From NCBI GenBank assembly GCA_900318355.1, contig ONKE01000056.1:28313-92312 (forward strand): a stretch of 64,000 bases of DNA, given 5' to 3'. The notes below the pieces were generated by a model. The model was not told where the DNA came from. It saw nothing but the letters and a program-made list of their open reading frames with translations, and did not search any database. The stretch is from an uncultured Bacteroidales bacterium (GTDB lineage: Bacteria; Bacteroidota; Bacteroidia; Bacteroidales; UBA932). This document shows positions 4,928 through 40,079 of this stretch, piece by piece. Numbering within the stretch: the stretch's first letter is position 1; the number at the start of each line of letters is the position of its first letter. Position numbers and translations under genes: made by a program.

Positions 4928-4979
4928 CATGAAACGATTTAATAGTAATCGACAATTAGCAACCTCAGAACTATTCTTT

Positions 4980-7900: not shown

Positions 7901-8033
7901 TTTCTACGTGAACGGACTCAATCTGCTGACCTTCGACAAATACCCGGTCAAATACAAGGATCCGGAGCAGAACAACGAACTCCTGTATCCGGTCTTCAAG
8001 ACTGTCAACATCGGGTTGAACATAACATTCTAA
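4980..8033 (+). CDS. SusC/RagA-type TonB-dependent outer-membrane transporter
   Basis: 1017 residues from the ATG at 4980, preferred over an upstream in-frame ATG at 4929 because it begins a clean signal peptide (MKIRLILFSCLLLWLWSVPGSAQ). Domains in order: a carboxypeptidase-regulatory-like domain (residues ~25-100), a TonB box/plug region (LEETVVVAYGQQKKESVVAALSSI; DGVEREFTALDPHEVATI; LKDASATAVYGVRGANGVI), then a 22-strand barrel ending NIGLNITF. With the SusD partner 6 bp downstream it should form a lidded channel importing oligosaccharides into the periplasm using TonB energy. The glycan is not identifiable from the sequence. Confidence 0.95.
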   Translation: MKIRLILFSCLLLWLWSVPGSAQNAAVKVIGAVRDGQNEPLQGAVIQVKDSQHGTMSDRNGQYSLDVPAGDATLVFSMLGYQTVEVRLEGRTRVDVILQEEVNTLEETVVVAYGQQKKESVVAALSSISAEGLVQTPTSNLGVALAGRLPGLTVLQRSGVPGGENLEFYIRGRSTINGQAPLCLVDGVEREFTALDPHEVATITVLKDASATAVYGVRGANGVIIVTTRRGKSGKPVIDATVEQSWQSATRLPDMVNAYDYAVLRNQVETQNGRVPIYDQEALEHYRTGDMQALYPTRNMIKDFIREASPMQRVNVNVSGGTERIKYFTTVGYLHQEGLFKSERFDEYDYDPTSKAMRVNFRSNLDVDITKRLHMALNVSGYMQRKNDPVIVPFNAGYLNDVQGYSVVIASIFTTPNNYHNDITPDGGVLTNSLKGGNINNVPYGMLNRSGFRNTQTNQVTASLGVTYDFDFITPGLSARVIASYDAFSSNQQVRQRTYQLYEAYANPESPDGVSYQPTGTNVDSALSDSQYQAFNNLFNIDASVNYARTFGKHDVTGMLLFNRYQRVINIELPYNYVGFVGRATYAYDRRLLAEINFGYNGSEQFAPGHKMGFFPSVSLGWVLSEEKWMAPVKDALSFLKVRASFGQVGNDNMNGSRFAFLTLWNGSYESQIGNDRLTWEKANKYNLGLEIGLFNMFRIEADAFYERRNNILIPATGLIPTGMFGTGGVDVSGMIPKINAGVIENAGFEISTTFQKQFTRDMRLDIRLNTAFNRNKVLDTREVLLPEDYACRLRSTGYRLGQPFGYEVAGFFNSEQDIVDWFDQSGLGAQPKVGDLKYRDENGDGIVDEKDAVPVGDPEIPEWNFGLALSFQWKGIDFSMMWQGVAGRSNWFGGQWVWENYNFNQWHKEAWSQERYDSGQRITYPRLDTNSTASKIASDFWYVDGDYFRLKNIELGYSLPKRWSKAIRAENIRFYVNGLNLLTFDKYPVKYKDPEQNNELLYPVFKTVNIGLNITF

Positions 8034-8039
8034 CAAGCG

Positions 8040-9827
8040 ATGATCATGAAGAAGATATATACCATACTGCTGGTTGCCGGCTGCCTTGCATCCCTGGCGG
8101 GCTGTGAAAAAATGCTGGAAAAGACCCCTGACGGGCAGATTACCCTGGACAAGGTCCTGTCCAATTACGCCCGTAGCAAGGGACTTCTGGATGCCGCTTA
8201 CAATGAGATGTACCTGAGCCGGGACGAGATATGCTTCGTCTTCCAGACGGTGGATTGCCTGACGGACAATGCATTCTGGGTGCAGATCTACAATGTCAAC
8301 GACTGGCACAACGGTTCCTTGTCCCTGAGCAATCCATGCATCACGGACCTCTGGGCCAGTCCGATCGAGCAGTTGTGGCCGGATTTCTGGCGCGGCGTCC
8401 GACTGGCCAACAACGCGATCAAATATCTGCCTCAGTCAACGGCCATAAACACTCAGGAGATGCAGACCTGGGTGGCGGAGGCGCGGGTTCTTCGTTGCTG
8501 GTACTACATGAACATCCTCGAGTTCTATGGTCCCATGCCGTGGATTTCCGAACCGTTCGACCCCAACTTTGAAGGCTGGGCCGATATCAAGCGCCCCACC
8601 TACGACGAGATTGCGACGACGATTTCCGACGAACTTATGGATGTCGTCCGTTCAGGCATCCTGCCCAACCGGCAGCCGGGCGCCAACGCTGCGCATGTGA
8701 GCAACGGCGTAGCACTGGCCATCCGGGCGCGGGTCCTGCTCAATAACGCAAGTTTGCTCAATAATCCCGAGCACGACCGTTCCAAGTGGCAGCGCGCCGC
8801 TGATGCCGCACAGGATGTGCTGGACATGTCCGAGTATGACCTGGTGCCCATGTCCGAGTACAAGAACTTGTTCATAGGAGCCTTTACAAAAGAGGTCCCA
8901 GAAATCATCTGGCGCTCGTGGCGCGACAACTCCGATATCAACAACAAGAACGGTGTAGACGTGGGACAGTACCCATATGCCTCGATTACCCATATCTGGA
9001 ACTGCGGCGAGTCGCCGACGCAGGAACTGGTCGATTGCTTCGAGATGACAAACGGCGCTATGCCGGTCACATATGACGATGACACCCACACGAAGGTTAC
9101 CGTAACGCCAGAGGCCGCCGAACTGGGATACAGCGAAGCGCCTGGCGGAGATCCGTATGCCAACCGTGACGCGCGTTTCTATATCGATGTGCTATACAAC
9201 GGAGCGAATTACGGAAAACCGTACAACTGCACTCAAGACTACATTATCGAAACGTTCGTCGGCGGCCGGAACGGCTTTAACGACATCATCTCCCAGGAAA
9301 CGACCAGATCCTGTACCGGCTATTACAGCCGGAAGGACAAGCAGGTGACCTACTGGGGTCCCGGCGGAGCCTGGCAGGGCAACGAGGCTACGCACTGGGT
9401 GCTATTCCGCCTGGCGGAATTCTATCTGAACCGGGCTGAGGCGCTTTGTGAATTGGAAGACTACGACAATGCCTGCAAGATGCTCAACCGGGTCCGCACG
9501 CGTGCCGGCCAGCCGGCTATCGAAGACGTCCCCGGCTTCGAGAAGTCTTATGAATTCCTGATGCCGCGAATCCGTAACGAGCGCCGTGTGGAGCTGTGCA
9601 TGGAAGGCTGGCGTTTCCACGATCAGCGCCGCTGGAAGATCCTCGACCAGACGAACCGTTTGGTGACCGGTATGCGAATTACCCGCGACGATGATGGCGT
9701 GTATCATTACGAACGTCGCAAAATTCGTGATTATCAGTCTTATACGGATAAGTACCTGGTCATGCCGATTCCGCTGAGCGATGCCAAGAAGCTGACTTCG
9801 CTGGAGCAACCGGAGGCCTGGAGATAA
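8040..9827 (+). CDS. SusD/RagB-type glycan-binding lipoprotein
   Basis: 595 residues. The signal peptide ends in the lipobox LAGC (MIMKKIYTILLVAGCLASLAGC; an ATG six bases later at 8046 is an equally good start). The SusD hallmarks are N-terminal helical TPR-like segments (VAEARVLRCWYYMNILEFYGPMPW) and the C-terminal RNERRVELCMEGWRFHDQRRW block, where family members end in a conserved R-x-E-L...RWxDLRRW pattern. It forms the surface lid of the SusC channel encoded just upstream. Co-transcribed with the DUF4998 lipoprotein 15 bp downstream. Confidence 0.95.
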   Translation: MIMKKIYTILLVAGCLASLAGCEKMLEKTPDGQITLDKVLSNYARSKGLLDAAYNEMYLSRDEICFVFQTVDCLTDNAFWVQIYNVNDWHNGSLSLSNPCITDLWASPIEQLWPDFWRGVRLANNAIKYLPQSTAINTQEMQTWVAEARVLRCWYYMNILEFYGPMPWISEPFDPNFEGWADIKRPTYDEIATTISDELMDVVRSGILPNRQPGANAAHVSNGVALAIRARVLLNNASLLNNPEHDRSKWQRAADAAQDVLDMSEYDLVPMSEYKNLFIGAFTKEVPEIIWRSWRDNSDINNKNGVDVGQYPYASITHIWNCGESPTQELVDCFEMTNGAMPVTYDDDTHTKVTVTPEAAELGYSEAPGGDPYANRDARFYIDVLYNGANYGKPYNCTQDYIIETFVGGRNGFNDIISQETTRSCTGYYSRKDKQVTYWGPGGAWQGNEATHWVLFRLAEFYLNRAEALCELEDYDNACKMLNRVRTRAGQPAIEDVPGFEKSYEFLMPRIRNERRVELCMEGWRFHDQRRWKILDQTNRLVTGMRITRDDDGVYHYERRKIRDYQSYTDKYLVMPIPLSDAKKLTSLEQPEAWR

Positions 9828-9842
9828 TCCTTTAAAAGCAAA

Positions 9843-11465
9843 ATGACTATGAAACCGATAAGAATATTGGGTATATCCCTGTTGGTAGTGACGGCGCTGG
9901 CCTCCTGCCGGAAAGAGGAAAAGGTCCTGCCGACGGTCGGCGACCTGGTTGTCTATCCGGGCAACGGCCGTGCCAAGGTCGAATTTGCGGCACCGGAAGG
10001 GGCTGTCGCAGGAAAAGTTTTCTACAACAACGGCGAATTTGCCGAGTTCCGGGTCGACCGTTCCGTCGCTACCCAGAGCGTCATTATAGAAGGACTCAAG
10101 GAAGGAGATCAGATAGTCCGCGTCCTGACTTGGGATGAGCAGAAGGTTACTTCCGATCCCAAGGGGATGCATGTGACCATTTATGGAAAGAACTATGCCG
10201 GCGGTCTCACATCCCGTTTGTTGCTTCATCAGCGCATTCTCTCGAAATATGCGGCCGAATATGAATTCGAGGAGAGCAAGGAAGGAGAAGTGGAAGTCCG
10301 GCTTTACTATGTGGGGCTGGACGGACAGAATAAAACGGCTTCTCTCCGTTCGAACCAGACGATCCTGAAGGTTGAGGACATCGACCTGGATCTCCCTTAT
10401 TCCTTCGCCTCCGTCTATAAGCCGGTCCCGGAGTGCATCGACGAATTCGTTACGGCGCCGGTCGATGCGCGCAGCGCGGCCATGAAGAACTTCGACAAGA
10501 TGATCTGGGAAGCACAGGCCGCCTCCGGTGCAAATCATTCGGCATCCAGCCTGATCGACAATCAGGTGGGGACATATTGGCAGGCCGCCTCGGCTGAACT
10601 GCCCGCCAGCGTAACAATTGACATGCAGCAGGAAAAGATCTTCCAGTCCGTCATCATCAACCAGGCCCGTGAGACGGGCGAGGGCTGTTTCGCCAAACGC
10701 TTCAAGGTGGAAACCAGCCCGGATGGCAATTCCTGGCGGGAACTGCTCAGCGGAAGCCTCAAGGCCAATGCATACCGACAGGAATTCCCGCTGGACGAAG
10801 AACGGAAAGCACGGTATATCAAAGTGACCATAACGGAAGGGCAGGATGCCTCACGTCCCGTGCAACTTGCGGAGATCGACTTGATCAATGATATCAACAA
10901 GAGCGGTGAAAATGGAGACGAGATGCCGAAACTGGTCAACAAGAGGGTTCCGTTCGAGGCGGACGGTTCCGACCGTTTCCCTGCCGTCGGCGTGGGGCGC
11001 TTCCAGCAGGTGACAGGATGGAACCACAATGAAGCGGCAAACATTTCCTGCGACACGGGTTCGAACAATATGATGTGCATTTGGTCCGCCAATGACTGGG
11101 GCTGTCCCAGCGTGGACAATGGCAAGGTATGGCAGACCATTAACCTGCTGGCCGGGTCCTATTCCTTTACGCTCACAGTGTCCAATATGGCAACCCCTGG
11201 CGGCTCGGAGGCATATGCGGTCGTCGCCCCGGGCGGGACGCCGCCGGACATTTTGGCCGTCAAGGCAGGGACATCCGGAGCGTTCGCCGTTCAGCGTATT
11301 GACCAGACCCCTTCGACGGACTACGTCCTGAAATTCGACTTGAACCAGGAAACCCGCATTTCGCTCGGCTATGTTTATTCGACGTATAATTTCATGACTC
11401 TGTCCGGAGGAACCATTCCCTGGAGCGAAGTTTATTTTACGTCATTCGACCTTGTGATGAACTGA
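9843..11465 (+). CDS. surface glycan-binding lipoprotein, DUF4998 + discoidin-like + DUF5013-like
   Basis: 540 residues with lipobox LASC after MTMKPIRILGISLLVVTALASC. The N-terminal ~200 residues resemble the DUF4998 domain of SusE-like position proteins (GNGRAKVEFAAPEGAV...). Residues ~225-350 look like an F5/8-type-C (discoidin) carbohydrate-binding domain (ASSLIDNQVGTYWQA; KRFKVETSPDGNSWREL; ARYIKVTITEG). The last ~170 residues fit a DUF5013-like jelly roll (GWNHNEAANISCDTGSNNMM; GKVWQTINLLAGSYSF). No catalytic signature is visible. It is the third gene of the SusCD operon and probably binds the same glycan at the cell surface. Confidence 0.8.
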   Translation: MTMKPIRILGISLLVVTALASCRKEEKVLPTVGDLVVYPGNGRAKVEFAAPEGAVAGKVFYNNGEFAEFRVDRSVATQSVIIEGLKEGDQIVRVLTWDEQKVTSDPKGMHVTIYGKNYAGGLTSRLLLHQRILSKYAAEYEFEESKEGEVEVRLYYVGLDGQNKTASLRSNQTILKVEDIDLDLPYSFASVYKPVPECIDEFVTAPVDARSAAMKNFDKMIWEAQAASGANHSASSLIDNQVGTYWQAASAELPASVTIDMQQEKIFQSVIINQARETGEGCFAKRFKVETSPDGNSWRELLSGSLKANAYRQEFPLDEERKARYIKVTITEGQDASRPVQLAEIDLINDINKSGENGDEMPKLVNKRVPFEADGSDRFPAVGVGRFQQVTGWNHNEAANISCDTGSNNMMCIWSANDWGCPSVDNGKVWQTINLLAGSYSFTLTVSNMATPGGSEAYAVVAPGGTPPDILAVKAGTSGAFAVQRIDQTPSTDYVLKFDLNQETRISLGYVYSTYNFMTLSGGTIPWSEVYFTSFDLVMN

Positions 11466-11475
11466 TGATGCTTCT

Positions 11476-11485
11476 GTTTTAAAAC
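11476..11485. promoter_or_regulatory. GTTTTAAAAC palindrome upstream of the GH71/99-like gene
   Basis: A perfect 10-bp palindrome about 20 bp before the -7 box at 11506. Its core TTTTAAAAC also occurs in the repeat upstream of the first susC-like gene (4874-4886), which suggests a shared regulator. Weak on its own because it is AT-rich. Confidence 0.3.
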
Positions 11486-11505
11486 GGGTTCTCGTCAATT
11501 ATTTG

Positions 11506-11513
11506 TAGATTTG
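11506..11513 (+). promoter_or_regulatory. -7 box, leaderless configuration
   Basis: TAGATTTG matches TAnnTTTG and ends only 5 nt before the ATG at 11519, so transcription should start at or within 3 nt of the start codon. Confidence 0.6.
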
Positions 11514-11518
11514 CGTTC

Positions 11519-13375
11519 ATGAAAAGAATAATGGTACTTTTTCTTTGTACGCTTTTGTTGGCCTGCTCGGCGCCGGAGTCAGCCCCGTCGCTTCCTCCGG
11601 ATAATAAACCGGATGAATCCCAGGTGCAGACGGAAGTGCTCCCTGTCGTTTCGGCAGACCCGATGAGCTGGGTTGCCCTGGCGCCGGATGGCTCCTGGAT
11701 GGAGGAGTATCCTGCCGAGCATATTGCCAAGACGGTGGGTATCTTCTACTTTCTCTGGCATGGCTGCCACGGATATGACAAATTTGAAAACAATAATTTC
11801 GTCAAATACCCGGGGCCGAACGATATCCACAGCCCCTACAACAACGAGGAAATCTATTCTGCGAATCCCTCCAACCCGCAGTTCGGCGACTTTGACGTTT
11901 TCCACCATTGGGGCGAACCATACCTGGGCTATTACATCGCCGACGATGACTGGGTGTTCCGCAAACATGCGCAGATGTTGTCCGATGCCGGAGTCGACGT
12001 GATCTTCATCGACGCTACCAACGGATTCGACTATTTCGACAACCTTAAAGTCCTGGCCGACGCATTCTTGGAACTGCGGGCTAAGGGCTGCAAGACTCCC
12101 CAGTTTGCCTATTTGTTGAACGTGGGAGCATCGGAGGTCTTCGACCGTCTGTATAATCTGATGTATTCCAAGGACCTTTACAAGGACCTCTGGTTCCAGT
12201 GGGGCGGCAAGCCGCTTATCCTTTGTTATGCTCCGGCCATAGCTTCCCCGGCCATAGCACAGTTCTCTACCCGTATGTCCTGGTTTACCTATAACCTTAA
12301 TTACATGGACCAGTGGTACGACGAGAATGGTGGAGAGGACAAGTTGCCATGGGGCGGCTGGTATCCGCAGAAACCGGGTTATCACGGCGGCGTGATTGAA
12401 TCGGCCTCCGTGATGGCCGCTACGCATCCACTCGACAATATGGGCCGAAGCTTCGATCCGCTGACGTGGACCGAGCCGGATGTCAAAGTGCCCGAAAAGG
12501 GGATTCATTTCAGGGCCCAGTTCGCCAAGGCCATGGAATACAATCCCAAAATGATGTTTTTCACAGGATGGAACGAGTGGGTGGCAATGCGTTACCGTCC
12601 CAGCGCGGACCATAACATGATCGGAATGCCTTCAACGGAATTCGGTTGCTTCTTCGTTGATCATTTCAACCATGAATATAGCCGGGACCTGGAGCCGCTG
12701 CGCGGCGGTTTTGGCGACGCTTACTACTATATGCTGTCGGATTTCTGCCGTAAATTCAAAGGGGCCAAACCTCCTAAAAAGTACAAGGAGTCGGCGAAAA
12801 TCGTCCTGGACGGGAAATGCGACGACTGGGCTGATGTCCAGGCATCCTTTGGAGATGATGTCGGAGATGCCACCTTGCACGACCATGTTGGTTGGGGACG
12901 TATCGGACATCTTGTCAACAACACGGCCCGGAATGATATCTCCCTGTGCAAGGTTGCAACGGACGGAAAGCAACTGTATTTCTATGTCCAGACGGATGGC
13001 GAACTGACCTCGTGCCTTGGAAAGGATTGGATGAAACTCTTCATAGGGGTACATCCGAAAGATCAGCCGGCCTGGGAAGGCTTTGACTTCTGCGTTCAAC
13101 GCCTCCATATCGACGGCGACGCTGTCGCGTTGGAAAAGAGCAAGGGCGGTTTTTCCTGGGAACATATCTGTGACGTGCCGCGCAAAGTCGGCAAGCGATG
13201 CATCGAGTTGTCAATACCGTTGGAGAAACTTGGTATTACCTCAGGTAATTTCACGGTCGATTTCAAGTGGATTGACAACGCTGCTTCAGACGGCGACATC
13301 CAGACATGCCTGTCTGATGGCGATTCCGCCCCGAACGGCCGGTATCGCTACCGCTACATTCATGTCGCGGAGTAG
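11519..13375 (+). CDS. glycoside hydrolase GH71/99-like lipoprotein with C-terminal CBM9-like domain
   Basis: 618 residues with a lipobox (MKRIMVLFLCTLLLAC). From residue ~65 the chain reads as a TIM-barrel of the GH71/GH99/WbsX-like group: VGIFYFLWHGCHGYD, a DAGVDVIFIDATNG strand, and GWNEW at 350-354 (Glu353 a candidate catalytic acid). This group includes endo-alpha-mannanases and related endo-acting enzymes. Residues ~430-615 resemble a CBM9/DOMON-type beta sandwich (KIVLDGKCDDWADV; VDFKWIDNA). The gene follows the SusCD operon by 53 bp but has its own near-leaderless promoter. It should cut an alpha-linked glycan at the cell surface; exact specificity is unknown. Confidence 0.8.
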   Translation: MKRIMVLFLCTLLLACSAPESAPSLPPDNKPDESQVQTEVLPVVSADPMSWVALAPDGSWMEEYPAEHIAKTVGIFYFLWHGCHGYDKFENNNFVKYPGPNDIHSPYNNEEIYSANPSNPQFGDFDVFHHWGEPYLGYYIADDDWVFRKHAQMLSDAGVDVIFIDATNGFDYFDNLKVLADAFLELRAKGCKTPQFAYLLNVGASEVFDRLYNLMYSKDLYKDLWFQWGGKPLILCYAPAIASPAIAQFSTRMSWFTYNLNYMDQWYDENGGEDKLPWGGWYPQKPGYHGGVIESASVMAATHPLDNMGRSFDPLTWTEPDVKVPEKGIHFRAQFAKAMEYNPKMMFFTGWNEWVAMRYRPSADHNMIGMPSTEFGCFFVDHFNHEYSRDLEPLRGGFGDAYYYMLSDFCRKFKGAKPPKKYKESAKIVLDGKCDDWADVQASFGDDVGDATLHDHVGWGRIGHLVNNTARNDISLCKVATDGKQLYFYVQTDGELTSCLGKDWMKLFIGVHPKDQPAWEGFDFCVQRLHIDGDAVALEKSKGGFSWEHICDVPRKVGKRCIELSIPLEKLGITSGNFTVDFKWIDNAASDGDIQTCLSDGDSAPNGRYRYRYIHVAE

Positions 13376-13485: not shown

Positions 13486-13493
13486 TAATTTTG
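13486..13493 (+). promoter_or_regulatory. -7 box of the keto-sugar operon
   Basis: TAATTTTG fits TAnnTTTG. It sits in the 151-bp gap (13376-13526) after the GH71/99-like gene; the rest of that gap shows no other gene. No good -33 element was found. Confidence 0.55.
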
Positions 13494-13495
13494 TA

Positions 13496-13520
13496 ATTCC
13501 GGCATGTTAGAGGCCGGAAT
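13496..13520 (+). promoter_or_regulatory. 5' leader stem-loop before the Tat-signal oxidoreductase
   Basis: ATTCCGGC (13496-13503) and GCCGGAAT (13513-13520) form a perfect 8-bp stem with a 9-nt loop. It starts about where transcription should begin and ends 6 nt before the ATG. It could protect the mRNA 5' end or modulate initiation. Confidence 0.45.
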
Positions 13521-13526
13521 AACACT

Positions 13527-14831
13527 ATGAGCGAAACCAGAAGATCTTTCCTGAAGAAGGCAGGCGCGGGAGTCGCCGCCTTCACGATCCTTCCAAGGCA
13601 CGTCCTCGGTGCCATGGGCAATCCCAAATACGTAGCGCCAAGCGACCAGCTCACCCGCGGCATCATCGGTGTGGGCGGAATCGGCATGAGCGGGCTCCAC
13701 TTCGTCAGCGACGAGCGCTGCCGCCTGGTGTCCGTCTGCGACGTGGACCAGAACCACCTCGACCGCGCAGTCCGCACGGGCAAGGAGCGTTTCGGCGAGC
13801 AGCTGAAGGCCTACCACGACTGGCGCGACCTCGTCCACGACCCCAATGTGGACATAGTCCATATCGCCACCCCGTCCCACTGGCACGGCATCATGGCGGT
13901 TGAAGCGGCACGCGCCGGGAAGGACATCTTCTGCGAAAAGCCTATGACGCGCACCATCGCCGAGGGCGAAAAGGTGGTCAAAGCCGTCCGCGACAACGGC
14001 CGCATCTTCCGTCTTGACACGTGGTTCCGTTTCAAGGACACGTTCTACGGCCTCGGCACCACCGTCGAACCGCTCAAAAAGCTCGTCAGCAGCGGCCTCC
14101 TCGGATGGCCCCTCACCGTCCGCATCAGCGGCGCCACCGGATTCACTTGGAAATTCTTCTGGACCGGGAAGGAAAATCTTGTCCCTCAGCCGGTTCCGAA
14201 GGAGCTCGACTACGATATGTGGCTCGGCCCCGCGCCGTACAAGCCCTACCATCCCCACCGTGTCCACCAGACCTTCCGCGGCTATTGGGACTACGAGAGC
14301 GGCGGACTCGGCGACATGGGACAGCACTACATCGACCCCGTGCAATACATCCTCGGCAAGGACGACACCTATCCCGTGCGGGTAGACGTCGACGCTCCCC
14401 AACAGCATCCTGACGCCGTAGGGACATGGCGCTCGATCACATACACCTACGCCGACGGCTGCCGTATCATTCTCGAAGGCGAAGGCTACGAGAGCAAGGG
14501 CAAGGTCCCTTACATCGAAGGCCCTCTGGGCAAGGTCTACAAGGGATTCGAATGCACCATCCCCAACGTCATGGACAAGATCGCCGAACTCCCCGACCCG
14601 GCTCCGCGCAACACCGACTTCCTCGACTGCGTGAAGAACCGCCGCCATTTCGCCCTTGACGAAATCATCGGCCACCACAGCGCCACGGTCGTCAACATCG
14701 GCGCCTGCGCCCTGCGTCTGGGCCGTAGCCTGGACTTCGATCCGGTCACATGCCGCTTTATCGGCGACGATGCCGCCAACCGCCTTATCGACCAACCTAT
14801 GCGTGCCCCCTGGGCGTCCATGATTCTGTAG
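13527..14831 (+). CDS. Tat-exported Gfo/Idh/MocA family oxidoreductase
   Basis: 434 residues. The N-terminus carries a twin-arginine signal (TRRSFLKKAGAGVAAFTILP), then a Rossmann motif GIIGVGGIGMSG (residues ~45-56) and the family EKP signature in DIFCEKPMTRTIAEGE. The C-terminal half has the Gfo/Idh/MocA alpha/beta domain, with GGLGDMGQHYID as a likely substrate/catalytic block. Tat export allows a folded enzyme with bound NAD(P) to reach the periplasm, as in Zymomonas glucose-fructose oxidoreductase. The next gene encodes a 3-keto-disaccharide hydrolase domain, so this enzyme plausibly oxidises a sugar at C3 outside the cytoplasm. The substrate is inferred. Confidence 0.88.
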   Translation: MSETRRSFLKKAGAGVAAFTILPRHVLGAMGNPKYVAPSDQLTRGIIGVGGIGMSGLHFVSDERCRLVSVCDVDQNHLDRAVRTGKERFGEQLKAYHDWRDLVHDPNVDIVHIATPSHWHGIMAVEAARAGKDIFCEKPMTRTIAEGEKVVKAVRDNGRIFRLDTWFRFKDTFYGLGTTVEPLKKLVSSGLLGWPLTVRISGATGFTWKFFWTGKENLVPQPVPKELDYDMWLGPAPYKPYHPHRVHQTFRGYWDYESGGLGDMGQHYIDPVQYILGKDDTYPVRVDVDAPQQHPDAVGTWRSITYTYADGCRIILEGEGYESKGKVPYIEGPLGKVYKGFECTIPNVMDKIAELPDPAPRNTDFLDCVKNRRHFALDEIIGHHSATVVNIGACALRLGRSLDFDPVTCRFIGDDAANRLIDQPMRAPWASMIL

Positions 14832-14833
14832 CC

Positions 14834-17506
14834 ATGAAAAAGATTGTCACCATTTTCGCCGGCCTCGTCCTTTCCGCCGGCCTCGTTTTCGCCCAGCAGG
14901 ATGCCCGCCAGCGCACCATCGATACCATCGTTGCCGACGCCCTCGCACAGCTGCCCGCCCGTGATGCGGAAGCACGCGTGGAACCTCTTGCCGACCTTGC
15001 CAAATGGGCGCCCGTGTCCGTGCCGCAGACGGCGAAGCTTCTTCCCCAGTCCCTGGCAGAATATGCCCTGGACGGCCTTGTAACCTATGTTTCCGACAAA
15101 TTAGACCGCAAGGCCGCCGTTGCCGAGGGGCTTCGCCGCGCCATCGCCGAAGCTCCCGCCTCCAACAAGCAGTTCCTGCTGGCCTGTCTGAGCCGTATTG
15201 CCGGCCCCGCCGACATCGATTGCCTCAGCGCCTGCGCGGCCGACCCCGCCCTTGCATCCACGGCCATCGGTACGCTTGTCGCCATTCCCGAGGCCGAAGA
15301 TGCCATCATGGCCCTGATTGGCAAAGGCGAAGCCGACCACTCCCTTCTGGCTTCCGCCGCCGCCAAATGCGGTTTGCGTCAGGCCGAGCCCGTGCTCCTG
15401 TCGTGGAATGCCGAGCCCGGTGTCCTCGAGGCGCTTGGCGTAATCGGCAGCGAAGCTTCCGCGCCGGTCCTCAAGGCGCAGTCGCCTGTCGACTATGCCC
15501 GTCTGCTTCAGACACTTGCCGCAGATGGAAAGACGGCCGTCGCGCTTAAAGGCGCCAAAGAGCTCGTAAAGAGCGAAAATGCCGCCATCCGCACCGCCGC
15601 GACCAATCTCCTCCTCAGCGCGCAGCCCTCCAAGAAGGCCCTGCCGCTGGTCGACAAGATCATTGCCGACCCCGACCGCAGCTACCGCGTCGCGTGCCTC
15701 TCCGAGGCTGGTAAAGTGCTTGGAGCAGAGGCTGTTGCCTCCCGCGCCTCCAAGCGGTTCAAGAAGCTTTCTCCCGAGGCTGCAGGCGACGTCCTTTATT
15801 GGGCCGGTTGCAACGGCGTGATGGGAGAAACCGTCCGCGCCGAAGCCCTTGCCGGCTCGGAAGACGCCATCGAGGCGGCAGGACGCCTTGGCCAGACCGA
15901 TGTCCTTCTCGGCCTTGCCGCAGAGGGCAACAAGGCTGCATACAAAGCCCTTGAGCGTATCCCCGGCGATATCCGTCCGGAACTTCTCAAATATGCCGAG
16001 GCCAATCCCGGCAATGAAAACCTTCTCGCCCTTGCGGGCAGTCGCCGTCTGACCGACCTGGCCCCTCAGGCCATCGAGATGGTCAAATCCGACGACGCGT
16101 CGGTCAAAGCAGCCGGCCTCCGCGTGCTTCCTGCCCTTTGCGACGCCAAGGTTGCCGCTCCCGTAGCCGCGTTGCTGGACGATGCCTCCGGAAGCGACGT
16201 CGCAGCCCTGCAACAGGCCTATTCCAACGCAATCCGCAACCTGGACGGCGCCGGTCAATATTCCGAGGCAGCCGCCCGCATCCGCACCGCCGTCAATCCC
16301 GAGAGGTTCTATCCCGCCCTGGCCCAGAGCGGTTCCGCCGATGCCGTGGCCAAGCTTGCAGCCAACGCGGCCCGTCCCGAGGCCCGTCAGGCGCTGATGG
16401 CAATCGACAACCCCTCCGCGGCTCCCGAGCTGCTGCGCCTGAGCAAGACCGCCCCGGAAAAGAACGCCCTGCTCAGCCGTTACGTCGAGCTGGTAAGCAC
16501 TTATGAATCAGACCTTGACAAGCGCCGCGTCGATATCGCCAACGCCCTTTCCCGCAGCGATGACGCCGACTTCCGCGGCAAGGCTCTTGGTGCTGTCGCC
16601 AAGATCCCCACGATGAAGGCCTTCCTCCTCGCCGGCAAATATCTCGACAGCAACGCCGCCTATCCTGCGGCTGCTGCCGTGCGTACGATTGCGGCCAAGA
16701 CCAACGAGGAAATCGACTACGCCCGCTACAAGGAATATCTCGAAAAGGCCAAGGCCATCTATGCCGCCCGCGGCGGTGCCGACGACGGCTATTCCATCGA
16801 CCAGATCAACGGCCTTCTCGCCGACGCCGAGCCTTCGCCGATATTCGTCCTTCCCGCCGACGAGGCCGCCCAGGGTTTTGAAATCCTCTTCGACGGCACC
16901 AACCTCGACAAGTGGCAGGGCGACAAGGAAGGCTACACTCCCGTCAACGGGGCAATCTACGTGTCGGCCGGCTATGGCGCCACCGGCAACCTCTACACCA
17001 TCAAGGAATACCGCAACTTCGTCTTCCGCTTCGAGTTCTGCTTCGTGCGCGAAGGCATCAACAACGGCGTCGGTATCCGCACCCCGATGGGCGTAGATGC
17101 CGCATTCGATGCCATGTGCGAGTGCCAGATCCTCGACCACGACGCCCCGATGTACGCCGGCCTGCACGACTACCAGGTCCATGGCTCCGCCTACGGTATC
17201 GTCCCTGCGAAACGCTTGGTCCACAAGCCTTTGGGCGAATGGTCCACCGAGGAAATCCGCGTTGAGGGCGACCGCATCAAGTGCACCGTCAACGGCGAGG
17301 TCATCCTCGATGCCGACCTGCGCAAGGCCTGCAAGGGACATGCTGTCGCTCCCGACGGAAGCAACCACAATCCCTACATGATCGACGGCCGCAACCACCC
17401 CGGTCTCTTCCGCGAGCGTGGCTACATCTCCTTCTGCGGCCACGGCGACGGTCTGAAACTGCGTAACATCCGTGTACTTGATCTCGAAAAGAAAAAGAAG
17501 AAATAG
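14834..17506 (+). CDS. secreted HEAT-repeat protein fused to a 3-keto-disaccharide hydrolase (DUF1080) domain
   Basis: 890 residues from the ATG at 14834, which begins a signal peptide (MKKIVTIFAGLVLSAGLVFAQ) and lies 2 nt after the upstream stop. Residues ~30-660 are Ala-rich helical repeats of HEAT/armadillo type (units such as LACLSRIAGPADIDCLSACA). Residues ~682-885 are a DUF1080 domain (Pfam: 3-keto-disaccharide hydrolase) with a LamG-like fold: FEILFDGTNLDKWQG, NGVGIRTP, ECQILDHDAP, YISFCGHGDGLKLRNIRV. The domain cleaves or eliminates glycosides carrying a 3-keto group. The repeats may serve as a scaffold for a partner enzyme. It ends with a lysine-rich tail just before the next gene. 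Confidence 0.85.
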   Translation: MKKIVTIFAGLVLSAGLVFAQQDARQRTIDTIVADALAQLPARDAEARVEPLADLAKWAPVSVPQTAKLLPQSLAEYALDGLVTYVSDKLDRKAAVAEGLRRAIAEAPASNKQFLLACLSRIAGPADIDCLSACAADPALASTAIGTLVAIPEAEDAIMALIGKGEADHSLLASAAAKCGLRQAEPVLLSWNAEPGVLEALGVIGSEASAPVLKAQSPVDYARLLQTLAADGKTAVALKGAKELVKSENAAIRTAATNLLLSAQPSKKALPLVDKIIADPDRSYRVACLSEAGKVLGAEAVASRASKRFKKLSPEAAGDVLYWAGCNGVMGETVRAEALAGSEDAIEAAGRLGQTDVLLGLAAEGNKAAYKALERIPGDIRPELLKYAEANPGNENLLALAGSRRLTDLAPQAIEMVKSDDASVKAAGLRVLPALCDAKVAAPVAALLDDASGSDVAALQQAYSNAIRNLDGAGQYSEAAARIRTAVNPERFYPALAQSGSADAVAKLAANAARPEARQALMAIDNPSAAPELLRLSKTAPEKNALLSRYVELVSTYESDLDKRRVDIANALSRSDDADFRGKALGAVAKIPTMKAFLLAGKYLDSNAAYPAAAAVRTIAAKTNEEIDYARYKEYLEKAKAIYAARGGADDGYSIDQINGLLADAEPSPIFVLPADEAAQGFEILFDGTNLDKWQGDKEGYTPVNGAIYVSAGYGATGNLYTIKEYRNFVFRFEFCFVREGINNGVGIRTPMGVDAAFDAMCECQILDHDAPMYAGLHDYQVHGSAYGIVPAKRLVHKPLGEWSTEEIRVEGDRIKCTVNGEVILDADLRKACKGHAVAPDGSNHNPYMIDGRNHPGLFRERGYISFCGHGDGLKLRNIRVLDLEKKKKK

Positions 17507-17509
17507 CCT

Positions 17510-18706
17510 ATGGAACGACTGCGGCTGGTTGTTTTCGGCCTGGGCAACCGGGCGCGCAAGTACTTGAGCTATCTTGACATGCATCCGAAAGAGGCGGTCC
17601 TGGCGGCCGTCATCGAGCCGGATAAGTTTAATCGCGCCTGGGCACGCCGCCGCTACGGAGTGCCCGGTGCCGCGTGTTTTGCCGACGCTGAAAGTTTCTT
17701 CAGCAGCGGAATAGAGGTCGACGCCGCCATAGTCGCTTCTCCCGACCGCGTCCATTATTCCCAGATGCGGGGGCTCCTTGCAATGAAATGCCCCGCGCTC
17801 CTGGAAAAGCCGGCGGCATGTACGTGGGAAGAATGCCAGGAGCTGGAGAGGCTCGCCGCCGGCATCCCGGTGGGCATATGCTATGTCATGCGCTTCCACC
17901 CTTACTACCGTAGGATCAAGGATATAATTGATTCCGAGGAGCTTGGTCGCGTCGTTTCGGTCGAGCATACGGAGTTCATAGGCCCCGACCGCATGGGACA
18001 CACCTACGTCCGCGGCCACTGGTCCAAGGCGGAAGAAAGCGCCCCGATATTCCTTTCCAAATGCTGCCACGACGTGGATATGCTCCTGTGGCTTCTTGGC
18101 GGCAAGGCGAGCGAAATACGCTCCGAAGGCAGCCTGTCGTTTTTCTGCCCGTCCAATGCGCCCGCAGGCAGCACGGCCCGTTGCATCGACTGCCCGATGG
18201 AGCAGGTGTGCCGCTATAGCGCGGTCGACCTTTATCGCCGTCGCCGCGAATGGACCGGAAGTTTCGTGATTCCCGACGGCCAGACGCTTTCCGACGTTGT
18301 GGAGCGCGAGCTGACCGAGGGCCGCTTCGGCCGCTGCGTGTTCCATTGCGACAACGACGTTTTCGACCGCCAGACCGTTTCGTTCCGGCTCGGCGACATC
18401 CCCGTCGTGATGAAGATGGACGGAATAACCCCGCGTGAAGGCCGCGTGAGCATCTTCCGCTGCGAAAAGGGCACGATAGAGGCCCGCGAAACGGAAATCC
18501 TCATCCAGGGCGCAAACGGCAGGCGGGAAGACTTCACCGAGGCCTCACGGCTTCCGCTCCACGCCTATGCCGACCATGCCGTGGTCGAAGACTTTTTCCG
18601 GGCCATCCGCGAAGGCGGCCGCCCGTCTGCCCCCCTTGACGAAGCGCTCGAAAGCCACAGGGTGTGTTTCGTGGCGCAGGAATGCAACAAATCCGACAGA
18701 CAATGA
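17510..18706 (+). CDS. cytoplasmic Gfo/Idh/MocA family oxidoreductase with Cys cluster
   Basis: 398 residues without a signal peptide. It has a nucleotide-binding N-terminus (VVFGLGNRARKY), the family EKP motif (LLEKPAACTWEE), and a C-terminal domain with KCCHDVDMLLWLLGG, in which His and Asp occupy the usual catalytic block. An insert has four cysteines, C213, C225, C228 and C234 (ARCIDCPMEQVC), with metal-site-like spacing. It follows the hydrolase by 3 nt and overlaps the MFS gene by ATGA. In context it could reduce imported 3-keto sugar back to the ordinary hexose, the counterpart of the exported oxidoreductase. That direction is inferred from gene order. Confidence 0.85.
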   Translation: MERLRLVVFGLGNRARKYLSYLDMHPKEAVLAAVIEPDKFNRAWARRRYGVPGAACFADAESFFSSGIEVDAAIVASPDRVHYSQMRGLLAMKCPALLEKPAACTWEECQELERLAAGIPVGICYVMRFHPYYRRIKDIIDSEELGRVVSVEHTEFIGPDRMGHTYVRGHWSKAEESAPIFLSKCCHDVDMLLWLLGGKASEIRSEGSLSFFCPSNAPAGSTARCIDCPMEQVCRYSAVDLYRRRREWTGSFVIPDGQTLSDVVERELTEGRFGRCVFHCDNDVFDRQTVSFRLGDIPVVMKMDGITPREGRVSIFRCEKGTIEARETEILIQGANGRREDFTEASRLPLHAYADHAVVEDFFRAIREGGRPSAPLDEALESHRVCFVAQECNKSDRQ

Positions 18707-19944
18707 GAAAGACAAATCTTTGGTTCCTGGCCCTTGTGGCCGCCATGGGAGGCTTCCTGTTCGGCTACGACACGGCCGTTGTCAGCGGAGCCGAGCAGCA
18801 GATCCAGCAGGCCTTTTCGCTTTCCCCGTCTCTTCACGGCTGGGTGATGAGTTCCGCCCTATGGGGAACGGTGCTCGGAGCCCTGTTCGGAGGCCGTATT
18901 ACCGACCGCTTTGGCCGCAAGCCCACGCTCTCGGTCATCGGCATCCTTTATCTGGTGTCGGCGCTGTGGAGCGCCCTCGCCACGGGTCCCGCCACCCTTA
19001 TTGCAGCCCGCTTCATCGGCGGACTCGCGGTAGGTTGCTCCTCCACCGCCGCGCCCGTCTACATCGCCGAGATTTCCCCTGCGGAAAAACGCGGCCTGAT
19101 GACGGCTATTTTCCAGCTGGATGTCGTGCTGGGTATGTGCGCCTCGCAGCTTGTCAACCTCCTTATCGGCACCGAAGGCGGCCCCGACATGTGGCGCTGG
19201 ATGCTTGGTGCAGAGGCGGTTCCGGCACTGCTTTTCGCCGTGCTGTGCCCCTTCCTCATCGAGTCTCCCCGCTGGCTGGCCGAGCGTGACGCCCTGCGCG
19301 CCGGAGCCTCTCCGTCGAGAGCAGTTTTCTTCTGCAAAGCCAATCTCAAGCCTATCCTGCTGGCGATTTCGGTGGCGTTTTTCAATCAGCTTTCAGGCAT
19401 CAACGCCGTCATGTATTTCATGAAGCGCATCTACATGATGGCAGGCTTCAGCGACCAGACGGCCCTGTCTCTGGTAGCCCTGACGGGCGTTTTCAACGCG
19501 ATTGGCACCATAATCGGGATGAACCTCATCGACCGCCTCGGCCGGAAGACCCTGCTCATAATCGGCGGCATCGGCTACGTGGTTTCGCTGCTTGCGTGTA
19601 CGATAGCCTTCCATGCGGGCGCCGGCGTCGTCGCCACGGCGGGCGTCATCCTCTTCATCATCTCGCATGCCGTCGGTCAGGGCGCCGTTATCTGGGTCAT
19701 CATGGCCGAAATCTTCCCCACGGCGGTTCGGGCACAGGGGCAGTCGCTGGGCGCATTTACCCATTGGGTCCTTTCCGCGTTCATCACCCTGGTGTTCCCC
19801 ATCGCCGCTGCGAAATTCCTTCCTGAAGTGATCTTCGGTTTCTTCCTCGTCATGATGGTGCTCCACCTTCTCTGGGCGATCTTCCTCGTTCCCGAGACCA
19901 AGGGCCGCCAGCTGGAAGAAATGTCCAATATCTGGAAACGATGA
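18703..19944 (+). CDS. MFS sugar transporter (sugar porter subfamily)
   Basis: 413 residues from the ATG at 18703, which overlaps the upstream stop (ATGA). Sugar-porter signatures are clear: GFLFGYDTAVVSGAEQQI in helix 1, RITDRFGRKPTL between helices 2 and 3, PVYIAEISPAEKRG after helix 4, ESPRWLAE after helix 6, FFNQLSGINAVMYF in helix 7 and PETKGRQLEEM at the end. Twelve helices are expected. The central loop after ESPRWL is shorter than in XylE-like proteins (~490 aa). Placed between keto-sugar enzymes, it most likely imports the released mono- or keto-saccharide. Confidence 0.92.
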   Translation: MRKTNLWFLALVAAMGGFLFGYDTAVVSGAEQQIQQAFSLSPSLHGWVMSSALWGTVLGALFGGRITDRFGRKPTLSVIGILYLVSALWSALATGPATLIAARFIGGLAVGCSSTAAPVYIAEISPAEKRGLMTAIFQLDVVLGMCASQLVNLLIGTEGGPDMWRWMLGAEAVPALLFAVLCPFLIESPRWLAERDALRAGASPSRAVFFCKANLKPILLAISVAFFNQLSGINAVMYFMKRIYMMAGFSDQTALSLVALTGVFNAIGTIIGMNLIDRLGRKTLLIIGGIGYVVSLLACTIAFHAGAGVVATAGVILFIISHAVGQGAVIWVIMAEIFPTAVRAQGQSLGAFTHWVLSAFITLVFPIAAAKFLPEVIFGFFLVMMVLHLLWAIFLVPETKGRQLEEMSNIWKR

Positions 19945-20453
19945 AGCGCATCGTACTGATTGTCATTCTGGCCCTGTTTTCCCTTGCAGGGTATGCCCAG
20001 GACCATATTTCGTTCCAGGGCGTACCGCTGTGCGGCAACGTCGACGACTGCATCCGGGCCCTCCGCAAGCAGAAATTCAAGCCGGCCGGCCCGTCCCAGC
20101 TACGTGGGAAATACCGTGGCGACGAAGTCACGCTGACCCTCGGCACTTCGCCATCTACGGGGGAGGTCTGCCTGCTCGTAGTCGCCTATCCGCGGGCAGC
20201 ATCATGGCAGGCGCTCAAGAACCAGTACGACACTTCGTTGATGATGCTGTCGGCCGAATACGGACAGCCGTCCCTCAAGAAAGAGGCATTCGACTATCCT
20301 TACTCCGAAAAGGACGGACTGCGCGCCCTGGAATACGGGAAATGCCATTTCACGGCAGTGTGGACCGTCCCTGCCGGCGAGATTACAGCATCCATGGCCC
20401 AGGACGGCAGGCTGCAGGTTTTCTTCTCCGACAAGTCCGGGATGAAGCAATGA
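19941..20453 (+). CDS. small secreted protein of unknown function
   Basis: 170 residues. The signal peptide is MKRIVLIVILALFSLAGYAQ, cleaved after AQ. The mature part begins DHISFQGVPLCGNVDDCIRALRKQKF and has a mixed alpha/beta look, with no catalytic motif recognised. Proteins of this style (a secreted domain opening on 'F.G.PL.G....F...L...GF') are common in Bacteroidales and usually unannotated. The ATG overlaps the MFS stop, and its own stop overlaps the next ATG, so translation is coupled within the operon. Function unknown. Confidence 0.75.
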   Translation: MKRIVLIVILALFSLAGYAQDHISFQGVPLCGNVDDCIRALRKQKFKPAGPSQLRGKYRGDEVTLTLGTSPSTGEVCLLVVAYPRAASWQALKNQYDTSLMMLSAEYGQPSLKKEAFDYPYSEKDGLRALEYGKCHFTAVWTVPAGEITASMAQDGRLQVFFSDKSGMKQ

Positions 20454-21016
20454 AAGCGCTGTTCATCCACGGTCTTGCCTCTTCCGGGGCCTACAAGATG
20501 GCCTCGACCCTTCGCATACTGCTTCACTGCGAGGTAATCGCCCCTGACGTGCCCATCGAGCCCGGCGCCGCCATGAAACTCCTGCATGATATATGTGCTT
20601 CGGAGCGGCCCGACATCATCGTGGGGCTGTCCCTGGGCGGTTTCATGGCCCAGAAACTTCGCGGCTTCCGCAAGGTGCTGGTCAATCCCGACCTGCATCC
20701 CTCGCGCCTCCTTTCCACGATGAAAGGCCGGGTGAAATACCTTTCCCCGCGCGCTGACGGAGCCGAAGATTTCCTCATTACGGACGAGATTTGCGCCGGT
20801 TATAAATTGCTGGAAGACGGCGAGTTCATCGGGTTGGACGAGGCTGAGCGCTCGATAACCCGCGGCTGCTTTGCGACGGAGGACGAAATGGTCCGCTGCG
20901 GCGACGAATTCGAGCTCCACTATCCCGGGCAGGGCGTCCGCTATCCCGGCCGCCATCTGCCTGACTATCCTGCGACTAAGGCATATATCCTGCCCGTAAT
21001 CCAGTCCCTGCTATGA
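20450..21016 (+). CDS. YqiA-like alpha/beta-hydrolase (UPF0227 type)
   Basis: 188 residues starting at the ATGA overlap at 20450. The start MKALFIHGLASSGAYKMAS gives the oxyanion HG motif. IVGLSLGGFMAQKL contains the nucleophile elbow GLSLGG (Ser in GxSxG). The C-terminal YPGRHLPDY region supplies a His consistent with a compact alpha/beta-hydrolase triad. It resembles the small cytoplasmic esterases of the YqiA/UPF0227 group. The physiological substrate is unknown. The same frame is open further upstream, but the overlap and the motif at the N-terminus fix this start. Confidence 0.75.
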   Translation: MKALFIHGLASSGAYKMASTLRILLHCEVIAPDVPIEPGAAMKLLHDICASERPDIIVGLSLGGFMAQKLRGFRKVLVNPDLHPSRLLSTMKGRVKYLSPRADGAEDFLITDEICAGYKLLEDGEFIGLDEAERSITRGCFATEDEMVRCGDEFELHYPGQGVRYPGRHLPDYPATKAYILPVIQSLL

Positions 21017-21990
21017 AAAGCCTGAGCTACCCCTCGACCGACCCCCACCTTAATATGGCCATGGACGAATTTGTCCTGGAGGGGCTTCGGCTGGACGAGC
21101 CGGTCTTCGTCCTCTGGCAAAATGCCCCTTCCGTCATTATCGGCCTGAGCCAGAATGCTTTCGCCGAGGTGAACCTGCCTTATCTGGAAGAGCATGGCAT
21201 CGCCCTGGCGCGGAGGGTGACTGGTGGCGGCGCAGTCTATCACGACCTCGGCAATCTCAACTACACCATCGCAGGCCGTTCCCGCGACCTCGAGCGCGAC
21301 TATCCGGCCTATGTGACCATGGTTGCGGATGCGCTGCGCAGGCTTGGCGTCCCGGCCGAGGTGTCGGGCCGCAACGACATTCTCGTTGAAGGGCGGAAAT
21401 GCTCCGGCTACGCGAAAAGGGTGTGGAAGGACCGTCTGATGATTCACGGCACGCTGATGTACGATGTTGATTTGGAGGTGCTTACCAGCGCTCTGGCCGT
21501 ACCGGGGAGCAAGCTCTCAAGCGCCGGCGTGACTTCGGTCCGCAGCAGGGTCGCCAACCTTAAGGAATTCCTCCCGGGCCTGCCGGATATAGGGGCGTTC
21601 CGTGCCGCACTGGGAGAAATCCTGTCCTGCGGCGACGGGCCGATAACCCTGACAGCCGGGCAACTTGACGCCGTCCGGCGCGATGCCGACGAAAAATTCC
21701 GCACCTGGGAATGGATCTACGGGCGTTCGCCGAGAGGGGAGTTCAGCGTAAGGAAAAAATTCGCCTGCGGCACCGTGGAGGCCACATTTTCCGTCGACCA
21801 CGGCCTGATCCGCGGCCTTAGCTTCGGGGGCGACTACCTTGGCAACATGCCGGCAGACGGCCTCGCCTCGCGTCTTGAAGGGGTGAGAGCCGACCGGGAG
21901 AGCCTGACAAAGGCCTGCGAGGGTTGTGAGCGCTATTTCGACGGCATGAGTCCGGAAGATCTGGCCGGACTTATCAATAATCGTCTTTGA
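21013..21990 (+). CDS. lplA: lipoate-protein ligase A
   Basis: 325 residues. LplA motifs are present in order: NMAMDEFVL near the N-terminus, VIIGLSQNAFAEVN, RRVTGGGAVYHDLGNLNYT (adenylate/lipoate binding), GRNDILVEGRKCSGYAKR carrying the active-site Lys, and HGTLMYDVDL. A C-terminal accessory domain is also present (FSVRKKFACGTVEATF). It activates lipoate with ATP and attaches it to lipoyl domains of 2-oxoacid dehydrogenases or the glycine cleavage H protein. It starts with an ATGA overlap with the esterase gene, and its 3' end overlaps the convergent serine hydrolase gene by 17 bp. Confidence 0.93.
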   Translation: MKSLSYPSTDPHLNMAMDEFVLEGLRLDEPVFVLWQNAPSVIIGLSQNAFAEVNLPYLEEHGIALARRVTGGGAVYHDLGNLNYTIAGRSRDLERDYPAYVTMVADALRRLGVPAEVSGRNDILVEGRKCSGYAKRVWKDRLMIHGTLMYDVDLEVLTSALAVPGSKLSSAGVTSVRSRVANLKEFLPGLPDIGAFRAALGEILSCGDGPITLTAGQLDAVRRDADEKFRTWEWIYGRSPRGEFSVRKKFACGTVEATFSVDHGLIRGLSFGGDYLGNMPADGLASRLEGVRADRESLTKACEGCERYFDGMSPEDLAGLINNRL

Positions 21991-27876: not shown

Positions 27877-27880
27877 AACC

Positions 27881-33880: not shown

Positions 33881-33883
33881 GGC

Positions 33884-34927: not shown

Positions 34928-34949
34928 TGGCTATGTGTTTTAGTTTTCG

Positions 34950-34957
34950 CAAAATTA
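34950..34957 (-). promoter_or_regulatory. -7 box of the GH130/SusCD operon
   Basis: TAATTTTG on the minus strand, 22 bp upstream of the GH130 ATG. No convincing -33 element, which fits a promoter dependent on the divergent AraC-type regulator. Confidence 0.55.
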
Positions 34958-34978
34958 TCGTTTCGCGCCCGCTAAATG

Positions 34979-35008: not shown

Positions 35009-35032
35009 TTTTTCGATTTTGCAATTTTTGTA

Positions 35033-35040: not shown

Positions 35041-35061
35041 TGCGTAAATTACAACGTTTTT

Positions 35062-38281: not shown

Positions 38282-38287
38282 CAAATT

Positions 38288-40075: not shown

Positions 40076-40079
40076 CGCC

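What the first reader, a model, noticed from the sequence alone, without database searches (positions are those of the whole stretch)
13486..21990. Candidate oxidation-assisted glycoside utilization operon coupled to lipoate ligase
Seen: a Tat-signal Gfo/Idh/MocA oxidoreductase, a secreted DUF1080 (3-keto-disaccharide hydrolase) fusion, a cytoplasmic Gfo/Idh/MocA enzyme and a sugar-porter MFS lie in order with 2-3 nt gaps and then ATGA overlaps. Two unknown/esterase genes and lplA continue in the same way. Known: Gfo/Idh/MocA enzymes can oxidise sugars at C3, DUF1080 acts on 3-keto glycosides, and Tat can export NAD(P)-loaded enzymes. Inference: the cell oxidises a disaccharide outside the cytoplasm, splits it without a classical glycosidase, imports the products and re-reduces them. 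Related gene sets exist in Bacteroides; this gene complement, with HEAT fusion, YqiA-like esterase and lplA, may be a distinct version.
Basis: partly seen in the sequence, partly recalled or inferred. Interest (0 to 1): 0.75.

Follow-up and report, generated by a model that had tools for sequence, protein, structure and literature searches.

The report
Undescribed oxidise-then-cleave sugar gene pair

Summary
The seven genes are exactly where reported, with 2 and 3 nt gaps and four ATGA overlaps. The core is real: a Tat-exported Gfo/Idh/MocA enzyme (A) and a secreted alpha-solenoid/PF06439 fusion (B). Of the 80 best A loci kept from 553 relatives, 78 have B directly downstream. Four of the 80 abut a canonical BT2158/BT2157 3-keto operon; in four a GH109-type gene is directly upstream. 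PF06439 structures are titled 3-keto-glycoside hydratase or eliminase/hydratase, so elimination plus hydration is likelier than plain hydrolysis. The cytoplasmic Gfo (C) follows B in 19 of 80. It is fold-closest to GH188 glycosidases and shares their KCCH motif, but fails other GH188 residues and has eight invariant cysteines. The MFS (D) is linked only here and in the nearest relative. Coupling to lipoate ligase is not supported: in that relative the 170-aa/esterase/lplA block lies about 31 kb from A-D beside lepA, and no other locus examined links it to A-B. The genome has a canonical BT2158/BT2157 locus elsewhere. I file A-B(-C) as a new variant of the known redox-glycosidase kind; substrate, activity and redox balance are untested.

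The parts
13486..13493 (+). Bacteroides-type -7 promoter-like box (TAnnTTTG; motif recalled), ending 33 nt before A
   Evidence: box within 120 nt upstream in 30 of 80 stretches (79 loci + window; L097 dropped, too short) against 4.8 expected by mononucleotide shuffling
13527..14831 (+). A: Tat-signal Gfo/Idh/MocA oxidoreductase (PF19051); predicted exported glycoside C3 dehydrogenase
   Evidence: invariant K138, D263, H267 in 10 of 10
14834..17506 (+). B: Sec-type leader (by eye), alpha-solenoid (HEAT-like, about residues 29-663) and C-terminal PF06439 (residues 681-881); predicted 3-keto-glycoside eliminase/hydratase
17510..18706 (+). C: cysteine-rich Gfo/Idh/MocA enzyme without a visible leader; GH188-like fold and KCCH motif
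18703..19944 (+). D: sugar-porter MFS; linked to A-C only here and in G014 among loci examined
19941..20453 (+). E: 170-aa protein with a leader-like start and no known family; not part of the conserved unit
20450..21016 (+). F: small alpha/beta hydrolase (UPF0227); precedes lplA in 4 of 29 other genomes' lplA loci, not seen with A-B elsewhere
21013..21990 (+). G: ordinary lipoate-protein ligase lplA
   Evidence: TIGR00545 above cut-off

Best explanation
A and B form a conserved exported two-step device of Bacteroidota. A, folded with its nicotinamide cofactor and exported by Tat, oxidises the C3 hydroxyl of a glycoside outside the cytoplasm. The PF06439 domain of B then cleaves the 3-keto glycoside by beta-elimination and hydrates the product; its HEAT-like solenoid is probably a docking or positioning arm. 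Where present, C acts in the cytoplasm as an NAD-dependent sugar C3 redox enzyme on an imported product or a related glycoside. In this lineage D is probably the importer. Shown here: gene content, conservation, Tat signal, predicted folds, conserved catalytic-type residues, and linkage to known 3-keto operons. Inferred: all reactions, the substrate, the role of the solenoid, and how the exported cofactor is re-oxidised. E-F-G (lplA) is a separate unit that stands next to A-D in this lineage only, as far as was examined.
For: A-B adjacent and co-directional in 78 of 80 kept loci, in 8 of 8 other same-genus B orthologs, and B-like sequence downstream of A in 8 of 9 further genomes from a 247-genome phylum sample. 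BT2158-like + BT2157-like + TIM genes abut A-B(-C) in 4 of 80 (L102, L133, L135, L152); those four dehydrogenases pass the NF058561 cut-off. A GH109-like gene is directly upstream in 4 of 80 and a tandem-PF06439 gene flanks in 17 of 80 (Pfam-checked for L156, and for L130, L133, L114). A aligns to 8tdf/8tdh over the EKP and the FRGxWD..GxLGDMxxH motifs, and those chains are the BT2158 type. The B domain matches 3-keto-2-hydroxy-glucal hydratases AL2 and BT2 and eliminase/hydratase 8rr2/9fbe. TatC present. C is fold-closest to NAD-dependent glycoside hydrolases, with a glucuronide-3-dehydrogenase also high.
Against: A is far below the BT2158-family cut-off (149.6 against 750). B shares only about 24% identity with the characterised hydratases. 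No substrate evidence. The solenoid of B is poorly conserved: most same-genus orthologs lack about 100 residues of it and distant ones are 29-30% identical overall, which speaks against a strictly conserved docking surface. C is not seen in 61 of 80 loci, and C relatives occur in 2 of 18 same-genus genomes (G022, G023) without a B ortholog, so it is not obligatory. L151 and L181 keep A without a detectable B; in L177 only the end domain, and in L180 and L182 no end domain, was matched. With the few queries used, most A-B loci show no SusC/D hit and none shows the D-type MFS.
Confidence: 0.62

Rival explanations
1. A-B is a deglycosylation or salvage device for plant or microbial small-molecule glycosides (aglycone removal, detoxification), not a nutritional disaccharide pathway.
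For: SusC/D pairs were found upstream on the same strand in only 7 of 80 loci (L100, L148, L149, L154-L156, L162, three SusC and three SusD queries, so a lower bound). A promoter-like box precedes A in 30 of 80 stretches. In some same-genus genomes the neighbours look by eye like ribosomal protein and uvrC genes (names recalled). BT2158 itself is needed for glucosinolate as well as disaccharide metabolism (PMC11300592, passages).
Against: 4 of 80 loci abut BT2158-family operons, and 6 Parabacteroides loci have SusC/D upstream within 10 kb.
Confidence: 0.2
2. The PF06439 domain of B is only a carbohydrate-binding module and A is the sole enzyme (a C3 epimerase or ping-pong oxidoreductase like glucose-fructose oxidoreductase).
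For: PF06439 regions have also been annotated as CBM66 (PMC5673643, passages read). B is large and mostly solenoid.
Against: Residues in the E-x-Q-x-x-D and H-G motifs shared with the BT2157-like protein (window B E763, Q765, D768, H870) are invariant in the 11-row B alignment, and E763, Q765 and H870 also in the 30-row one. Structures of relatives are titled as enzymes. The terminal domain is the most conserved part of B.
Confidence: 0.12
3. The full A-G set is one functional operon in which lipoate ligase and the esterase serve the glycoside pathway.
For: Continuous ATGA overlaps through D/E, E/F and F/G.
Against: In the nearest relative E-F-G is about 31 kb from A-D, next to lepA, with a TAnnTTTG box before E read by eye. 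No E, F or G hit at 1e-6 in the 80 A-B loci. An lplA match occurs in 31 of 37 same-genus genomes, a B ortholog in 9 of 37. The D/E overlap can arise because E's own ATGA supplies D's stop; G014's D ends differently, in TAA.
Confidence: 0.04

Closest known systems
Bacteroides thetaiotaomicron BT2157-BT2158 (3-keto / redox glycosidase) system and Alistipes AL2
   Same: Exported Gfo/Idh/MocA glycoside 3-dehydrogenase plus secreted PF06439 protein; A shares the EKP and FRGxWD..GxLGDMxxH motifs with BT2158-type structures
   Different: A carries a strong PF19051 domain and scores 149.6 against the 750-bit family cut-off; B is a large solenoid fusion; no TIM-barrel partner among the scanned window neighbours; the genome holds a BT2158-family/BT2157-like/TIM locus separately
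GH188 NAD+-dependent sulfoquinovosidases (8qc2-8qc8)
   Same: C has this fold as best match, the KCCH motif, and equivalents of Lys107, His193 and Arg166
   Different: Glu189, Tyr136 and Lys172 equivalents are Ser, Phe and Val in the window; C has eight cysteines invariant over 21 relatives
GH109 NAD-dependent glycosidases
   Same: Gfo/Idh/MocA enzymes; the one in L156 has a twin-arginine leader (by eye); such a gene lies directly upstream of A-B in 4 of 80 loci
   Different: Neither A nor C matched PF21252, the GH109 C-terminal domain, at E<=0.01
Zymomonas glucose-fructose oxidoreductase
   Same: Recalled: Tat-exported Gfo enzyme with a tightly bound cofactor; a model for how A could work without a soluble NAD pool
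   Different: Recalled: no cleavage partner

Membership tests
BT2158-family glycoside 3-dehydrogenase (NF058561) | Score above curated cut-off (750 bits) | tested here: not met
   A scores 149.6; P. distasonis ortholog 139.8
BT2158-family glycoside 3-dehydrogenase (NF058561) | Export signal and Gfo-type Lys/Asp/His (roles recalled) | tested here: met
   Tat signal; K138, D263, H267 in 10 of 10
PF19051 GFO_IDH_MocA_C2 | Score above gathering cut-off | tested here: met
   454.5 against 23.3
PF06439 3-keto-glycoside eliminase/hydratase | Domain above cut-off and same fold | tested here: met
   105.8 against 26.8; Foldseek 8v31, 3osd, 8rr2
PF06439 3-keto-glycoside eliminase/hydratase | Enzyme activity on 3-keto glycosides | not testable with these tools
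   Needs protein
HEAT/ARM solenoid proteins | Alpha-solenoid of helical pairs | tested here: met
   Model pLDDT 91, helices residues 29-663; Foldseek HEAT-type matches; Pfam HEAT_2 in ortholog L156 but not in the window protein
GH188 sulfoquinovosidase | Lys107 and His193 at C3-OH | tested here: met
   K100 and H187, 21 of 21 (residue roles PMC10755693, passages)
GH188 sulfoquinovosidase | Glu189, Tyr136 and sulfonate-binding Lys172 | tested here: not met
   Ser183, Phe129, Val167 in the window; Tyr is present at 129 in 12 of 21 relatives, Val167 in 21 of 21; sulfonate site said to be conserved in almost all GH188 (PMC11465081, passages); His321 not covered by the alignment
BT2159-family disaccharide 3-dehydrogenase (NF058563) | C above cut-off (650) | tested here: not met
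   No match listed for C at E<=0.01; C relative in L126 37.7
Polysaccharide utilisation locus | Co-transcribed SusC/SusD | tested here: inconclusive
   A SusC/D locus lies upstream (4929-13375) but 151 nt with a promoter-like box separate it; A-D lies beside a different SusC/D locus in G014
Lipoate-protein ligase (TIGR00545) | Score above cut-off | tested here: met
   328.3 against 280; an ordinary ligase

The most novel reading that the evidence does not exclude
A-B-C is an undescribed branch of redox glycoside cleavage. A HEAT arm docks the exported, cofactor-loaded dehydrogenase onto an eliminase/hydratase so that the reactive 3-keto glycoside is channelled. C founds a cysteine-cluster (metal or Fe-S bearing) NAD-dependent glycosidase family related to GH188.
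Probability: 0.14. Interest if true: 0.75.

Novelty: new variant of a known kind. Interest (0 to 1): 0.5.

Why it matters
Redox (non-Koshland) glycoside cleavage was tied to genes only recently (recalled). This adds a conserved gene pair found in many gut Bacteroidales and some other Bacteroidota, with a solenoid-fused cleavage enzyme and, in about a quarter of the loci examined, a cysteine-rich partner. Because named strains of Parabacteroides and Alistipes carry it, the substrate question can be tested genetically in cultured bacteria.

Tried and rejected
Rejected: the lplA/esterase coupling. Rejected: C as a BT2159-type reductase (no NF058563 match) and C as a GH188 member (residue tests). 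Rejected: A as a plain BT2158-family member (cut-off). Led nowhere: a paper search on PDB codes (none of the 15 listed of 21 found is on this topic by title). Broad lyase searches (25 of 319 listed; 4 listed) showed no paper on this pair; listings seen only. The 618-aa neighbour (11519-13375) has no Pfam, NCBIfam or PDB match. The VIA-align library was not available. The local PF06439 domain count had one misplaced seed (a HEAT stretch), so its apparent extra domain at residues about 430-660 is an artefact and is not used. Statement on print: no paper describing the HEAT-PF06439/Tat-Gfo pair appeared in the listings of searches; the library holds only open-licence papers, and the 2024 paper on this chemistry (recalled, not read) was not among the hits. 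Papers: passages only were read of PMC11300592, PMC9007349, PMC10755693, PMC11465081 and PMC5673643.

Full report
What is there. Seven ORFs, here A-G, lie in order on the + strand at the reported coordinates. Junctions are 2 nt (A/B), 3 nt (B/C) and four ATGA overlaps. The window lies in a 2.3 Mb, 77-contig genome, 91% complete. The one soft point is 'HEAT': Pfam does not call it in the window protein at E<=0.01. The AlphaFold model of B (30-sequence alignment, mean pLDDT 91, pTM 0.58) is helical over about residues 29-663, then a beta domain. Foldseek finds PF06439 structures for the end domain and, lower down, HEAT-type solenoid proteins. Pfam finds HEAT_2 plus two PF06439 stretches in the P. 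distasonis ortholog.

Conservation of the core. Among 36 other same-genus genomes, 8 carry a clear B ortholog (bits above 500). In all 8 it is adjacent to A at 77-93% identity, A being cut by the contig end in G014. Most titles are gut or rumen Bacteroidales; one says Akkermansia (L114) and one Clostridiales (L130). B lies directly downstream on the same strand in 78 of 80, cut by the contig end or frame-split in a few. L094 ends inside A; L151 (P. chinchillae) has A without B. In a 247-genome Bacteroidota sample, 10 including this one have A at E<=1e-80. Of the other 9, 8 have B-like sequence downstream: in L177 only the end domain matched, and in L180 and L182 no end domain matched. L181 has none. 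A twin-arginine pair is present in 75 of 80 and RK in 5. TatC is encoded in this genome. A TAnnTTTG box lies within 120 nt upstream of A in 30 of 80 stretches (79 loci plus the window; L097 dropped for lack of upstream sequence) against 4.8 in mononucleotide shuffles.

What the core does. A matches the structures 8tdf/8tdh over both the nicotinamide half and the FRGxWD..GxLGDMxxH motif. These two chains are the BT2158 type, because the BT2158-family protein of this same genome (834 bits, above the 750 cut-off) matches them at 835 and 833 bits. A itself is far below that cut-off (149.6), so it is a relative, not a member. K138, D263 and H267 are invariant in 10 of 10. The B end domain resembles structures titled 3-keto-2-hydroxy-glucal hydratase (AL2, BT2) and 3-keto-glycoside eliminase/hydratase, at about 24% identity. 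This makes elimination plus hydration more likely than direct hydrolysis. In the 11-row B alignment E763, Q765, D768, H783 and H870 are invariant; in the 30-row one E763, Q765, H783 and H870 are. The E-x-Q and H-G motifs are shared with the BT2157-like protein. The solenoid is far less conserved, and most same-genus orthologs lack about 100 of its residues. The strongest functional hint is context. In 4 of 80 loci a BT2158-like, BT2157-like and TIM set abuts A-B or A-B-C (L102, L133, L135, L152), and all four dehydrogenases pass the family cut-off. In 4 of 80 a GH109-like gene is directly upstream, and in 17 of 80 a tandem-PF06439 gene flanks the unit, 15 of them upstream on the same strand (Pfam checks of representatives).

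C. A C-family Gfo lies downstream of B in 19 of 80 loci, within about 230 nt in 17 of them. Of the 61 without it, 2 lack B and 9 have under 1.3 kb of contig left. It is also found without a B ortholog in G022 and G023, 2 of the 18 same-genus genomes given to (B). Its model (pLDDT 87) is fold-closest to GH188 NAD-dependent glycoside hydrolases, with a phthalate-diol dehydrogenase, other Gfo enzymes and a glucuronide-3-dehydrogenase close behind. From the phmmer alignment and the residue roles in PMC10755693 (passages read), Lys107, His193 and Arg166 correspond to K100, H187 and R161, each 21 of 21. Glu189, Tyr136 and Lys172 correspond to S183, F129 and V167 (Tyr at 129 in 12 of 21). I counted this mapping by hand, taking chain index minus 13 as paper numbering, which fits Lys107, Glu189, Tyr136 and His193. 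So C has that style of fold and part of its active site but is not a GH188 member by the features tested. Eight cysteines (124, 186, 225, 228, 234, 276, 280, 386) are invariant in 21 of 21; a metal or Fe-S site is possible but not shown.

D to G. D is adjacent to C only here and in G014 (92% identity); of 18 same-genus genomes given to, 7 have a D match at E<=1e-40, but apart from this genome and G014 only at 37-41% identity. An lplA match occurs in 31 of 37 same-genus genomes. In the 29 lplA loci of other genomes examined, each with up to 1.5 kb of flank (one further hit, in G011, had no locus), the esterase F precedes lplA in 4 and the 170-aa E only in G014; none shows A-D. In G014, E-F-G lies divergently next to lepA (98%), the glycosyltransferase (81%) and UbiA (81%) genes that stand at 38279-41808 in the window. 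On its other side it is convergent with the SusC/D locus that precedes A in the window (91-96% for SusC, SusD and the 618-aa protein), and D is about 31 kb away. A TAnnTTTG box before E was read by eye. A-D there sits beside a different regulator/SusC/D locus. In the window D's stop TGA is part of E's ATGA, while G014's D ends in TAA after different last codons. This fits a rearrangement that fused D's end to E's start. Which arrangement is ancestral within the G000/G014 pair is not settled; outside the pair no linkage was seen. Misassembly of this draft genome cannot be fully excluded.

Against this reading. The substrate is unknown. With the SusC, SusD and MFS queries used, only 7 of 80 A-B loci show SusC/D upstream on the same strand and none shows a D-type MFS, so the unit may serve glycoside salvage rather than a dedicated disaccharide pathway. 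The route of cofactor re-oxidation outside the cytoplasm is unexplained; a ping-pong cycle as in glucose-fructose oxidoreductase (recalled) is one option.

Compared with what is known. BT2158 is described as a periplasmic glycoside 3-dehydrogenase, and its deletion mutant does not grow on trehalose, leucrose or palatinose (PMC11300592, passages). BT2157 is described as a 3-ketotrehalose hydrolase of the DUF1080 family (PMC9007349, passages). The chemistry is therefore known. The A-B pair, its solenoid fusion and the C family did not appear in the paper listings seen. I file it as a new variant of the redox-glycosidase kind.

Noticed in passing
window 11519-13375 (+): 618-aa protein with a leader-like start, ending a SusC/D locus, with no Pfam, NCBIfam or PDB match; 91% identical homolog in G014 and 26-32% homologs in other loci.
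   Followed up: partly
window 26491-38256: SusC/D locus with MFS and GH130 mannooligosaccharide phosphorylase genes, 30930-32627 without Pfam match, and a hybrid two-component regulator; it stands between lplA and lepA here, whereas in G014 E-F-G directly adjoins lepA.
   Followed up: partly
window 49525-63849: GH3, GH78-type rhamnosidase, AraC regulator and SusC/D genes.
   Followed up: no
L038 895-3234 and L002 2197-3084 (G000:C38): BT2158-family dehydrogenase (834 bits), BT2157-like PF06439 protein and a TIM-barrel-type gene in the same genome, outside the window.
   Followed up: yes
C family, alignment A3: Eight cysteines invariant over 21 sequences in a Gfo/Idh/MocA enzyme, including CxxCx5C and Cx3C.
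   Followed up: partly
L156 3334-14737, P. distasonis: SusC/D, GH109, A and B in a row, a cultured host for testing the pair.
   Followed up: partly
L151 10001-11257, P. chinchillae: A without B although the contig continues; possible gene loss.
   Followed up: no
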